Source: an uncultured Clostridium sp.
Lineage (GTDB): Bacteria; Bacillota; Clostridia; Peptostreptococcales; Peptostreptococcaceae
Length of the DNA stretch: 49,028 nucleotides
Direction of reading: 5' to 3'
NCBI GenBank assembly: GCA_945931665.1
Contig: CAMEPL010000010.1
Span: forward strand, 1 to 49,028
In this document: positions 24,369-27,985 of the stretch, piece after piece
Position numbering within the stretch: position 1 is the first letter of the stretch
Layout of the letters: each line of letters starts with the position of its first letter
The notes under the pieces: generated by a model
Told to the model about the DNA's origin: nothing
Database searches by the model: none
Seen by the model: the letters and a program-made list of their open reading frames with translations, nothing else
Made by a program: the position numbers and the translations under genes

Positions 24369-25694
24369 CTAGTTTATGATTTTTTCTACAAAATCTTTTC
24401 CTTCATTTTGACAAGTTATTACTTGAACATTTAATTTTTCTGATAATTCTTCTAATGTTATATCATCTAAAAATACTTCTTCATCGCTTTTTAACATAGA
24501 TCTAGTTATATATAAAGCACTTCCTAAATCTTTATCTTTTAATTGTTTGATTATATCTGTAGCAGTTATAAGCCCTGATACAGTTATTGTATGACCGAAA
24601 TAATCATTTCTTATCTTATATACGTTTATTTTTACATTTTTGAATTTTTCCATAACCTTACCAGCCATCTCGCTTATAAATTCATAAGCTGAACTTCCTG
24701 TAGCTATAGAAACAGTCTTTTTGATGCTATCGTCTTCATCTAAAGTATCTAAGTAGTTTATAATTTCTGTTCCTTGTTTACGAATCATACCTACTCCGTC
24801 TTCAAATTGTAAAAACCCTTCATATTCATCATAATCTAATAGTGGTCTTTTCGCTATTATATAAAACTCATCTGATAAGAAAGCAAATCTTGTATTTAGT
24901 TCTTTTAAATACTTCTCTTGTAGAGCATGTACTTGGTCAATAGTTTCATTTGCACTTTCATAGTCGAAAATTTCTAATTTTGCTAAATTTTCTCTATATT
25001 TAGTAATACCTACAGGTACTATAGCAACACTATTTACATAAGGATAAAGACTAGATAAATCACTTAAAGTTCTATCTAATTCTTCTTTGTCATTATATCC
25101 AGGACATAACACTATTTGACAGTTCATTTCGATATGTGCATCTGCTAATCGCTTCATAGTACCAATTAATTTTCCAGCATGCTTGTTTGTTATCATTTTT
25201 CTTCTAAGCTCTGGATTCGTTGTATGAACTGATATATTTATAGGACTTATTCTGTATTTTATTATATTATCTATATCCTCTTCACTCATATTTGTTAAAG
25301 TGACAAAATTTCCTTGTAAGAAAGAAAGTCTTGAATCATCATCTTTGAAATAAAGAGTTTCTCTCATACCTTTAGGAAGTTGGTCTATAAAGCAAAAAAC
25401 ACATTTGTTTCTACAACTCTTTGCTTTATCGATTATAGGGTTTACGAATTCTATACCTAATTCTTCATCAAAATCCTTTTCGATTTCGTATATATAGATT
25501 TCTCCATCTCTTTTTTGTATTTCTAACTCTATATACTCATCACTTATTAAAAATTTATATTCTATAATATCGTGAATTTCTTCGTCATTAACAGCTATTA
25601 ATAAGTCTCCTACTTCTATTCCAATTTCTTCAGCAATAGAACCCTTATAAACTTTACTTATGATGTTGTTGCTATTTTTTACGTTGACTTCCAT
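24369..25694 (-). CDS. DUF512 PDZ/radical-SAM-like protein
   Basis: A 441-residue protein with an N-terminal PDZ-like domain (residues 1-70, SIAEEIGIEVGDLLIAVNDEEI) and a radical-SAM-like barrel carrying CRNKCVFCF, a CxxxCxxC cluster for a [4Fe-4S] centre, near residue 92. The C-terminal DUF512 region includes TGSSAYEF and FGHTITVSGLITATDI. The family is widespread in Clostridia, often beside der, with no defined reaction. It heads the operon with der, plsY and gpsA behind its own SigA promoter. GGGTG lies upstream of the ATG. The radical-SAM chemistry is inferred from the cysteine motif only. Confidence 0.88.
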   Translation of the reverse strand: MEVNVKNSNNIISKVYKGSIAEEIGIEVGDLLIAVNDEEIHDIIEYKFLISDEYIELEIQKRDGEIYIYEIEKDFDEELGIEFVNPIIDKAKSCRNKCVFCFIDQLPKGMRETLYFKDDDSRLSFLQGNFVTLTNMSEEDIDNIIKYRISPINISVHTTNPELRRKMITNKHAGKLIGTMKRLADAHIEMNCQIVLCPGYNDKEELDRTLSDLSSLYPYVNSVAIVPVGITKYRENLAKLEIFDYESANETIDQVHALQEKYLKELNTRFAFLSDEFYIIAKRPLLDYDEYEGFLQFEDGVGMIRKQGTEIINYLDTLDEDDSIKKTVSIATGSSAYEFISEMAGKVMEKFKNVKINVYKIRNDYFGHTITVSGLITATDIIKQLKDKDLGSALYITRSMLKSDEEVFLDDITLEELSEKLNVQVITCQNEGKDFVEKIIN

Positions 25695-25729: not shown

Positions 25730-25758
25730 ATAATATCGTATAATTTTAAGTTAGTCAA
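25730..25758 (-). promoter_or_regulatory. SigA-type promoter of the DUF512-der-plsY-gpsA operon
   Basis: Minus-strand TTGACT, 17 nt, TATTAT. It separates this operon from the YIEGIA genes upstream. Confidence 0.7.
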
Positions 25759-25783: not shown

Positions 25784-25981
25784 TTAATGTTTAACTATTA
25801 TTAAGGTTTCTTTTGCTATTTCATGAACAACTCCATCTACACATTTAGCCATTAACATCGCTTTATTCTGCATATCGTCATCATTATTCGCATAAAATAT
25901 AGGACATCCTCCTGCAGATGTCATATTTTTATCAGTTGTTATTATTGCTAAGGTAAAATCATTTATAGACATATCTGACAT
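25784..25981 (-). CDS. Small capping-subunit-like partner of YIEGIA
   Basis: A 65-residue soluble protein with no signal peptide or membrane helix. Its best match from memory is the small family named as a capping-complex subunit for YIEGIA, found next to YIEGIA genes in spore-formers. Visible features are the N-terminal AIITTDKNMTSAGGCPIFYA and a C-terminal helix/strand ending ETLIIVKH. The ATG lies one base after the stop of the YIEGIA gene, with AAGGAAGG upstream, so translation is tightly linked. Function is unknown; a role as a cytosolic cap on the membrane protein is inference. Confidence 0.75.
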   Translation of the reverse strand: MSDMSINDFTLAIITTDKNMTSAGGCPIFYANNDDDMQNKAMLMAKCVDGVVHEIAKETLIIVKH

Positions 25982-25982
25982 A

Positions 25983-26915
25983 TTACTTACCTTCCTTTCT
26001 TCCTATTACGTAATTTTTTAAGGATATATTTTTTCCTCTAGCACTTGAAACTATTGGTGTTGATTTAACTGTTTGTATAACTGCGTCAATATTTTTTTCA
26101 ATAGGCAAATATGCAATTACTATACTTTCATTTTTAGGATTTCTTCTTGGTATAGGAGTAAAAACTGGTTCATTTTTTTGTCTATACAGTCCCAATCTGC
26201 TGTACAGAGTATATGCTATTGTCTGTCTTTGTCCCGGGTCTTGTATTATTGAAGCATTTATATAATTATTGTCTTTTGGAACTATTTCTATTCCGACTCC
26301 ATATTTTAAAAACTTTTCTCTTTCTGACTTTAGACCTACATTTGTTATTCCACTCAAAGAACCAACTTTAAGTATGCTGTCATTTTCAAATGATATATCT
26401 ACTATGTTTACATCGGCTATATCTCCGATGGAATCTCTTCTTATAAGTCTTTTTAAAATAAATGCCAAGATAATTCCAAATATAGTACTTATAAGTAAGC
26501 TTATACCTTGACTCATTTTGAATTCAGATGTAATTAAGTAGTAACAACCAACTGTAAAAAATGATGATATTATACACATATAGTTTCTTACTTCATACGT
26601 CTTTGCAATCTCTTCTATAAATGCATTTCCTCTTTGTACTAGCTGTTTTGCTTCTAATTCGGTAAGTGTATCTCTTCGATTTTCTCTTACTTGTCTAAAT
26701 TGTTCTGCTGCTAAAGATAAAAAGGTAATTGATGTATATGATCTTTCAATCAATGCAGGAACTAGTAATGCCCCTAGTGCAGATGCAATAAAAGCTAATA
26801 CTAATTGTGTGATTAAAACATTTGGTTGTGTGGGGTATTGTTTTTGCTCTAAATTAAGCATAATTAATCTCGTTAATATCCCTATTATTATTCCGATTAA
26901 AAAAACTTTGTCCAT
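25983..26915 (-). CDS. YIEGIA family sporulation-associated membrane protein (copy 1)
   Basis: A 310-residue membrane protein with four predicted helices (about 4-20, 33-55, 117-135, 140-162) and a soluble C-terminal domain of about 150 residues. The family motif appears as FIEEIAKTYEVRNY just before helix 3, close to the YIEGIA consensus. The C-terminal half carries IRRDSIGDIADV and EREKFLKYGVGIEIVPKD, shared nearly block for block with the neighbouring paralogue. GAGAGG precedes the ATG. The family tracks with endospore formation, but I know of no defined biochemical role. It forms an operon with the second copy and the 65-aa gene. Confidence 0.82.
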   Translation of the reverse strand: MDKVFLIGIIIGILTRLIMLNLEQKQYPTQPNVLITQLVLAFIASALGALLVPALIERSYTSITFLSLAAEQFRQVRENRRDTLTELEAKQLVQRGNAFIEEIAKTYEVRNYMCIISSFFTVGCYYLITSEFKMSQGISLLISTIFGIILAFILKRLIRRDSIGDIADVNIVDISFENDSILKVGSLSGITNVGLKSEREKFLKYGVGIEIVPKDNNYINASIIQDPGQRQTIAYTLYSRLGLYRQKNEPVFTPIPRRNPKNESIVIAYLPIEKNIDAVIQTVKSTPIVSSARGKNISLKNYVIGRKEGK

Positions 26916-26934
26916 TTTTCACCTCTCAAATCTC

Positions 26935-27867
26935 TTATTTTATTAAACATTGATAATTACTTTGTTTTCCTTTTGCTGCTTCTAAAATAGGTGTACTACC
27001 TGCCACCTGTTTTATAAGTTCCATATCGTTTAGAATTGGCATAAACACTATTAATACACTTTTTGTCTTTAAATCTACTTTTGAGGTTGAAACTATATCA
27101 TGTTCATCTACATCTTTATCTATACCAGTATGAATAAATATATTGTATATAATTGCATCCCTTTGTCCTAAATCATTTATAACACCAAAATCTTTTTCGT
27201 CCTTTGGCACAACTTCAATTGCAATTCCATTTTTTAAAAATCTTTCTCTAGTATCTTTTAGACCTATATTAGTAATAACTACATCGTTTACTTTCATTAT
27301 CGGTCCATCAAAATAAATTTTAGCTTCTTTTATATCTGCTATATCATTTATACTATTTCGTCTTAATACTTTTCTAAATATTAAACCAACTATTGCTGCA
27401 ACAACTATTGCTGCTAATGTGCATATTATTATATTTTCACCAAATCTTTTTGCAATTAGAACATATGCTATTGATGACCCAAGACCAGCAAATAAACTTA
27501 CATAACTTCTAACTTCATAAGTAGAAGCTATTTCATCAATATAAGTTGCACCCTTTTTTACTATTTCATCCTCATCTATATTATTTAATGTTATTTTCTC
27601 TTGTTTAGATAAGCCTTGGAATTGTTGCACCCCTACAGCTAAAAATGTCAATGCTGCAAATTCTTTGTCCATAAGCGCTGGTAATGCAATTCCTCCTAGT
27701 GCTGAAGTAAGCCCCGCCATTATAATTTGTTCTATATAATCTTGCGGTCTTGTTGGGTATTGTTTGTCTTTTATTCTGAGCACTAAAAACCTACATAGCG
27801 TTCCAAGTAAAACAGCTACTAAAAATGAATGTCTAAACAGAGCCTCATCTAATACACTTTCCTTCAT
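26935..27867 (-). CDS. YIEGIA family sporulation-associated membrane protein (copy 2)
   Basis: A 310-residue paralogue of the gene just downstream, with the same plan: four membrane helices, the motif YIDEIASTYEVRSY before helix 3 and a C-terminal domain with LRRNSINDIADI and RERFLKNGIAIEVVPKD. I start at the ATG at 27867, because AAGGAG lies 8 nt upstream while the track GTG overlaps that site. It is first in the operon, downstream of the histidine-kinase terminator. I see no strong SigA promoter ahead of it, which would fit a sporulation sigma factor. The two copies have diverged enough to suggest a hetero-oligomer rather than a recent duplication. Confidence 0.82.
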   Translation of the reverse strand: MKESVLDEALFRHSFLVAVLLGTLCRFLVLRIKDKQYPTRPQDYIEQIIMAGLTSALGGIALPALMDKEFAALTFLAVGVQQFQGLSKQEKITLNNIDEDEIVKKGATYIDEIASTYEVRSYVSLFAGLGSSIAYVLIAKRFGENIIICTLAAIVVAAIVGLIFRKVLRRNSINDIADIKEAKIYFDGPIMKVNDVVITNIGLKDTRERFLKNGIAIEVVPKDEKDFGVINDLGQRDAIIYNIFIHTGIDKDVDEHDIVSTSKVDLKTKSVLIVFMPILNDMELIKQVAGSTPILEAAKGKQSNYQCLIK

Positions 27868-27935
27868 AAAATACACTCCTTTTTAAAATAAATTTCAACT
27901 TTCTTAACGTTATAAATTTATTTTGTACAAAAGAA

Positions 27936-27985
27936 AAAATCTTATGTAAACTTTCTATATTGATAGATTATTTACATAAGATTTT
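27936..27985 (-). terminator. Terminator after the histidine kinase gene
   Basis: AAAATCTTATGTAAA and TTTACATAAGATTTT form a perfect 15-bp stem with a 20-nt loop and T-run on the minus strand. Confidence 0.85.

What the first reader, a model, noticed from the sequence alone, without database searches (positions are those of the whole stretch)
25784..27867. Three-gene YIEGIA module: two diverged membrane paralogues plus a 65-aa partner
Sequence shows two adjacent 310-aa proteins with the same plan (four helices, the YI(D/E)EIA-TYEVR motif, a shared C-terminal block ending in VPKD), followed one base later by a small soluble protein. Between the paired genes and the der operon there is a fresh SigA promoter, while no strong SigA promoter precedes the module. 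The family is known to track with endospore formation but has no assigned mechanism. Inference: the paralogues form a hetero-oligomeric membrane complex capped on the cytosolic side by the small protein, used in sporulation.
Basis: partly seen in the sequence, partly recalled or inferred. Interest (0 to 1): 0.65.

Follow-up and report, generated by a model that had tools for sequence, protein, structure and literature searches.

The report
Paired spore membrane proteins with cap
This is a three-gene unit in a spore-forming gut bacterium: an ancient duplicated pair of membrane proteins of unknown function and a tiny partner that always accompanies them. It is probably made inside the developing spore, and the family is known but its job is not.

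Summary
On the minus strand lie two adjacent 310-aa YIEGIA proteins (PF14045, 352 and 344 bits), then a 65-aa PF21835 protein, already named in Pfam as "Capping complex subunit for YIEGIA". Two details were wrong: VPKD is mid-domain, not the end, and the model has five long helices. The host is an Intestinibacter.

New here: YIEGIA and cap co-occur without exception (114 of 250 phylum genomes, 37 of 61 relatives), and YIEGIA follows spore genes, exactly so within the window's family (30/30 versus 0/7). The tandem pair comes from one duplication in Peptostreptococcaceae; both copies are kept in all 25 descendant genomes, with one cap. Independent second copies elsewhere each carry their own cap. 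The copies separated in charge (A positive, B negative), which suggests but does not prove a heteromer. Both replaced a near-invariant His with Gln. A conserved CAAA(A/C)TA box follows the phoR terminator. Published C. difficile data put the orthologous operon under σF/σG, i.e. the forespore.

Mechanism stays unproven: no solved fold matches, and the B. subtilis homologue YphB is reported as dispensable for sporulation and germination. I favour a cap-restrained forespore-membrane effector built from A+B.

The parts
26935..27867 (-). YIEGIA copy B (CD2636-type), 310 aa, first gene of the unit
   Evidence: ORF; PF14045 344.5 bits; orthologue group B monophyletic, SH-aLRT 100
25983..26915 (-). 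YIEGIA copy A (CD2635-type), 310 aa
   Evidence: ORF; PF14045 352.3 bits; group A monophyletic, SH-aLRT 98; AF2 model pLDDT 84.7, pTM 0.78
25784..25981 (-). Cap protein (CD2634-type), 65 aa
   Evidence: ORF; PF21835 77.6 bits; AF2 model beta-beta-alpha-beta-beta, pLDDT 88.8; invariant P27, H53 and C-terminal H65
27936..27985 (-). Intrinsic terminator of phoR that separates the unit from the upstream genes
   Evidence: Hairpin then U-rich tail, -19.4 kcal/mol, z = -4.8; a terminator at the same place in relatives
27919..27925 (-). Candidate -10 element CAAAATA (with ACATA at 27943-27947, 17 nt upstream) of a sigma-F/sigma-G-like promoter
   Evidence: CA[ACT]A[AC]TA found upstream of copy B in 25/27 tandem-pair loci; shuffles mean 3.5, max 9; pattern defined after viewing the alignment; coordinates
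25730..25758 (-). SigA-like promoter of the following radical-SAM/der transcription unit (boundary of the module, not part of it)
   Evidence: TTGACT-N17-TATTAT, 10/12; a TTG...TA...T pattern in this intergenic region in 31/32 loci

Best explanation
The unit is a forespore transcription unit encoding a membrane effector and its obligate small partner. Shown: one ancestral YIEGIA gene, always with a cap gene, was duplicated once in the ancestor of most Peptostreptococcaceae; both copies and a single cap have been kept ever since. Inferred: A and B assemble with each other (rather than as two homomers) in the forespore membrane, later the spore inner membrane, with their C-terminal alpha/beta domains in the cytosol, and cap binds that cytosolic face and holds the complex inactive until a signal releases it. 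What the released complex does is a weaker inference. My first guess is a regulated attack on, or control of, a cytosolic target during entry into or exit from dormancy. An unverified recollection of mine points to regulated proteolysis of translation initiation factor IF2 under cyclic-dinucleotide control; I could not find any such source in the library and give that specific step about 0.3.
For: Perfect co-occurrence of YIEGIA and cap in 250 phylum genomes (114/114) and 61 relatives (37/37) (Fisher p about 3e-74). Five genomes with a second, independent YIEGIA also have a second cap, and the second pairs sit at unlinked loci, so cap behaves as an obligate partner. The tandem pair has only one cap. 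A and B are sister clades from one duplication; 25/25 pair genomes in 15 genera keep both and all 26 named pair loci have the order B-A-cap. Charge separation: residues 73-82, singles +0.8 to +1.0, A +3.1, B -0.5, sum 2.6 against 2.0 for two copies of the nearest singles; C-domain, singles -0.7, A +1.5, B -2.6. Published: C. difficile CD2636-CD2634 reduced in sigF and sigG mutants, with CD2635 and CD2634 marked as spore-associated (PMC3789822); CD2635 seen in spores (PMC6174930); a B. cereus YIEGIA-domain protein among spore inner-membrane proteins (PMC8624511); B. subtilis YphB under sigma-F (PMC12017682). Conserved promoter-like box and flanking terminators.
Against: No direct evidence of any A-B or YIEGIA-cap contact; no complex could be modelled. 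The aggregate test for complementary loss of invariant residues fails (P about 0.94, i.e. in the wrong direction). The A-B distance correlation is matched by phoR. The charge argument rests on one evolutionary event and was found after looking. YphB is reported non-essential for sporulation and germination in B. subtilis. No catalytic motif was recognised and no fold match found.
Confidence: 0.5

Rival explanations
1. Active/scaffold split: A is the working subunit and B is a degenerate YIEGIA that only scaffolds or regulates A. This is a special case of the heteromer.
For: B lost more residues that are invariant in single-copy proteins (D23, R74, R77, R95, N111, P254 in A numbering) than A did (A62, E80, Y99, E290); A lies next to cap in every locus; B evolves faster (mean distance 0.52 against 0.44).
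Against: Both copies lost the same near-invariant His37, Y30, R25 and G41, so A is not simply the ancestral-type protein; B keeps E80, Y99 and E290, which A lost; dN/dS of B is as low as that of A.
Confidence: 0.3
2. Two separate homo-oligomers: A and B form independent complexes with different roles, and cap serves only one of them.
For: 34% identity between A and B; aggregate residue losses are not complementary; independent YIEGIA copies elsewhere evidently stand as separate units.
Against: Those independent copies each have their own cap, whereas the tandem pair has one. No pair genome has lost A or B alone, and A-B adjacency and order never vary.
Confidence: 0.25
3. A spore inner-membrane channel or germination component, as suggested for CD2635/CD2636 from their sigma-G control.
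For: PMC3789822 suggests that sigma-G-controlled membrane proteins, CD2635 and CD2636 among them, may be involved in germination. Several transmembrane helices and conserved Pro/Gly in TM2.
Against: No fold similarity to known channels (best E 0.3); YphB reported dispensable for germination in B. subtilis; 103 of 216 SpoIVA-positive phylum genomes lack YIEGIA, so sporulating lineages can do without it.
Confidence: 0.15

Closest known systems
PF14045 YIEGIA family (B. subtilis YphB; C. difficile CD2635/CD2636)
   Same: Full-length family matches, same C-terminal GQR motif and YI(E/D)xIA helix, same forespore sigma control in published data, same der/spoIVA neighbourhood in Clostridia.
   Different: Two copies with one cap instead of one copy with one cap. 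Both copies replace the near-invariant His37 by Gln and change Y30/R25/G41, a combination seen only in this clade among the sequences aligned; His to Gln alone also occurs in one distant single copy, G192.
PF21835 YIEGIA_cap
   Same: 77.6 bits, invariant P27, H53 and C-terminal H65; always beside YIEGIA.
   Different: Carries GGCP at the family's central loop where most single-copy caps have S/T/G-xP (listing). No functional consequence known.
Effector-inhibitor pairs in general (works like, not a member)
   Same: The partner is never found without the other, and each new copy of the large gene brings its own small gene.
   Different: Core chromosomal, developmentally timed and apparently vertically inherited rather than mobile; no toxicity shown.

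Membership tests
PF14045 YIEGIA | Whole-protein HMM score above the gathering cut-off (27 bits) | tested here: met
   352.3 and 344.5 bits over nearly all 282 positions
PF14045 YIEGIA | Name-giving YIEGIA motif followed by (F/Y)ExRNY | tested here: met
   A: FIEEIAKTYEVRNY; B: YIDEIASTYEVRSY; degenerate at the G, as in the order's single-copy proteins (YIEDIA)
PF14045 YIEGIA | Near-invariant DYRQYPxYP...H segment of single-copy members | tested here: not met
   D/Y/R/Y/H replaced wholly or partly; His to Gln in 37/37 A and 38/38 B sequences. This is a feature of single-copy members found here, not a published criterion, so membership stands
PF21835 YIEGIA_cap | HMM score above the cut-off and adjacency to YIEGIA | tested here: met
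   77.6 bits; one base from A
Sporulation-linked family | Occurs only in genomes with sporulation genes | tested here: met
   113/114 YIEGIA-positive phylum genomes have SpoIVA; the exception G127 has Spo0A and SpoIIP beside YIEGIA
Forespore (sigma-F/G) regulon | sigma-F/G-dependent expression | tested here: inconclusive
   Conserved CAAA(A/C)TA box but no match to a strict B. subtilis-type sigma-G consensus in 23 loci; expression data exist for C. difficile, not for this species
Membrane protease controlling translation (recollection) | Proteolysis of IF2, ligand-controlled cap | not testable with these tools
   No source found in the library; no active-site motif recognised

The most novel reading that the evidence does not exclude
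The Peptostreptococcaceae pair is an obligate heteromer that arose by duplication of a homo-oligomeric spore membrane protein, with the two subunits separating in charge and jointly abandoning a near-invariant, probably extracytoplasmic His. That would be a bacterial case of a symmetric machine becoming asymmetric, under a single shared cap.
Probability: 0.45. Interest if true: 0.58.

Novelty: new variant of a known kind. Interest (0 to 1): 0.42.

Why it matters
YIEGIA is a conserved forespore protein of many spore formers, C. difficile included, without an established role in the literature I could reach. The strict YIEGIA-cap rule says which two parts must be studied together. The tandem pair gives a natural genetic handle: residues that A alone or B alone kept mark the surfaces or sites worth mutating, and species with one copy (Tepidibacter, Alkalithermobacter) are the comparison.

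Tried and rejected
Aggregate complementary-loss test of invariant residues: not significant, slightly in the other direction. Mirror-tree correlation of A, B and cap: strong for A-B but equally strong with phoR, so non-specific. Strict sigma-G consensus upstream: 0/23; only the -10-like box is conserved. Solved-structure searches by sequence and by fold: nothing above chance; the E = 2e-4 hit of the cap profile to an engineered ankyrin protein has no significant stretch and was rejected as chance. Natural YIEGIA-cap fusions to model the complex: none; G277's long cap frame and G222's long YIEGIA frame are only open reading frame extensions. Guilt by association from second copies: neighbours differ at each locus. 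Literature on YIEGIA function, SeaA/YphB and cyclic dinucleotides: nothing mechanistic in the library.

Full report
What is there. On the minus strand of the window, in transcription order, are copy B (26935-27867, 310 aa), copy A (25983-26915, 310 aa) and cap (25784-25981, 65 aa), with one base between A and cap. Pfam assigns B and A to PF14045 YIEGIA (344.5 and 352.3 bits) and the small protein to PF21835, 'Capping complex subunit for YIEGIA' (77.6 bits). NCBIfam has no matching model. The closest named genomes are Intestinibacter (A 94% to Clostridium sp. 1001270J, 88% to I. bartlettii DSM 16795). All three genes are under purifying selection, dN/dS 0.03-0.07 against these relatives.

Corrections to the reading. 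VPKD lies at residues 212-215 of A and 220-223 of B; about 90 residues with the conserved GQR motif follow. AlphaFold2 of A (85-sequence alignment, pLDDT 84.7, pTM 0.78) gives five long helices (3-26, 33-56, 60-88, 97-131, 136-157) and an alpha/beta domain from about 160. From the distribution of positive charges I infer N-in, C-in topology, with the QYPTxP loop outside and helix 60-88, the YIEGIA helix and the C-domain inside; this is inference. Cap is predicted as beta-beta-alpha-beta-beta, pLDDT 88.8.

YIEGIA and cap are inseparable. In 61 relatives both occur in the same 37 genomes; in 250 genomes sampled across the phylum both occur in the same 114. Five of these (G094, G130, G161, G186, G276) have a second YIEGIA, and each has a second cap; the second pairs sit at unrelated loci with unrelated neighbours. 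Each YIEGIA locus therefore brings one cap. The exception is the tandem pair of the window's family: two YIEGIA, one cap.

Link to sporulation. SpoIVA is present in 113 of 114 YIEGIA-positive phylum genomes and in 103 of 136 negatives (Fisher p 8e-9). The one exception, G127, has Spo0A and SpoIIP beside its YIEGIA. In the window's own family the match is exact: 30 genomes with both, 7 with neither (p 1e-7). Related species are not independent, so these p-values overstate. The converse does not hold: 103 of 216 SpoIVA-positive genomes lack YIEGIA, so it is not a universal sporulation part. The B. subtilis control genome has both genes.

Published expression. The gene order around the window matches the C. 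difficile region CD2629 (spoIVA) to CD2637 (histidine kinase). PMC3789822 lists CD2636, CD2635 and CD2634 as one operon reduced in sigF (0.20, 0.33, 0.27) and sigG (0.34, 0.5, 0.65) mutants, with 'sigma-G?' for CD2636 and with CD2635 and CD2634 marked as found in spores; qRT-PCR of CD2636 also shows strong reduction. PMC6174930 reports CD2635 in spores. PMC8624511 finds a B. cereus YIEGIA-domain protein among uncharacterised spore inner-membrane proteins. PMC12017682 states, citing Decatur and Losick 1996, that B. [quoted passage not shown] This places the module in the forespore and argues against an indispensable role, at least in B. subtilis.

Transcription unit. Upstream of copy B is the phoR terminator (27936-27985; z = -4.8). 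Directly after it, in 25 of 27 tandem-pair loci, comes CA[ACT]A[AC]TA (shuffles mean 3.5, max 9), in the window CAAAATA at 27919-27925 with ACATA 17 nt upstream. It resembles a sigma-F/G -10 element, but a strict B. subtilis-type sigma-G consensus is not matched and the pattern was defined after viewing the alignment. In most relatives cap is followed at once by a terminator-like hairpin and then a SigA-like promoter for the radical-SAM/der genes. The window itself lacks an obvious hairpin there.

History of the pair. In a tree of 88 proteins, A and B are each one clade (SH-aLRT 98 and 100) and are sisters (99); the single copies of Tepidibacter and Alkalithermobacter fall just outside. One duplication therefore occurred inside the family after those genera split off. 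All 25 descendant genomes sampled, in 15 genera, keep both copies, and all 26 named pair loci have the order B-A-cap.

What changed. Among residues conserved in at least 95% of 85 single-copy proteins: lost in both copies are R25, Y30, H37 (to Gln in 37/37 A and 38/38 B), G41 and F107 (to Tyr). Lost mainly in A: A62, E80, Y99, E290. Lost mainly in B: D23, R74, R77, R95, N111, P254 and some hydrophobic positions. H37 to Gln also appears in one distant single-copy protein (G192), so it is not unique to the pair. The aggregate overlap of losses is not lower than chance, so residue losses as a whole do not show subfunction partitioning. The charge pattern is more suggestive: in residues 73-82 singles carry +0.8 (nearest singles +1.0), A +3.1, B -0.5, sum +2.6; in residues 91-113 A 0.0, B -2.1, sum equal to twice the nearest singles; in the C-domain A +1.5, B -2.6, sum -1.0 against -1.5 for two singles. 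The external loop does not follow this rule. This is what packing of A against B would favour, but it is one event seen after the fact. Distance correlation between A and B is high after control for neighbours (0.75) but equally high with phoR (0.67-0.75), so it says nothing specific.

Structure comparison. Neither model matches a solved structure significantly: best E 0.3 for YIEGIA, 0.48 for cap, with weak SepF and Smr hits. The viral library gives nothing, and sequence profiles find no solved relative.

Mechanism. The strict pairing, the forespore timing and the inferred cytosolic position of the conserved helices fit a membrane effector held by a small cytosolic partner. Cap as a brake rather than an activator is inference from the rule that no YIEGIA goes without one; a structural subunit would give the same pattern. 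For the target I have only an unverified recollection of a claim about IF2 proteolysis and cyclic dinucleotides, which I treat as a lead; nothing in the library supports or refutes it.

Verdict. The module is a real, sporulation-linked, already named family pair; the tandem duplication sharing one cap is a lineage-specific variant that I have not found described.

Noticed in passing
L191-L195 (second YIEGIA copies in G094, G130, G161, G186, G276): Five Clostridia-type genomes carry a second YIEGIA with its own cap at loci unrelated to der/spoIVA, with different neighbours each time (P-type ATPase, SBF transporter and PAS/GGDEF, MatE, M23 peptidase).
   Followed up: partly
window 24369-25694 and 77 of 80 named loci: A PDZ-radical SAM protein (DUF512) follows cap in nearly every locus from Peptostreptococcaceae to Desulfotomaculum relatives, ahead of der-plsY-gpsA-spoIVA; its function is not obvious.
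   Followed up: no
L160 and L153: MAGs labelled Actinobacteria and Armatimonadetes carry YIEGIA plus cap. L160 has the clostridial der-plsY-gpsA context, so it is probably misbinned; L153 is unclear.
   Followed up: no
L196 (G192) YIEGIA: A distant single-copy YIEGIA lacks the DYRQYP segment (GRSHYP) and has Gln in place of the conserved His, as in the tandem pair; a PrkA gene lies beside it.
   Followed up: no
L197, L198, L202: In deep-branching lineages a DUF3189 protein follows the YIEGIA/cap genes, and SpoIIP precedes YIEGIA in L198 and L200.
   Followed up: no
L115, L119, L122, L132-L135 downstream of cap: The stop codon of cap overlaps or abuts a GGTACC-type terminator hairpin in many relatives.
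   Followed up: partly
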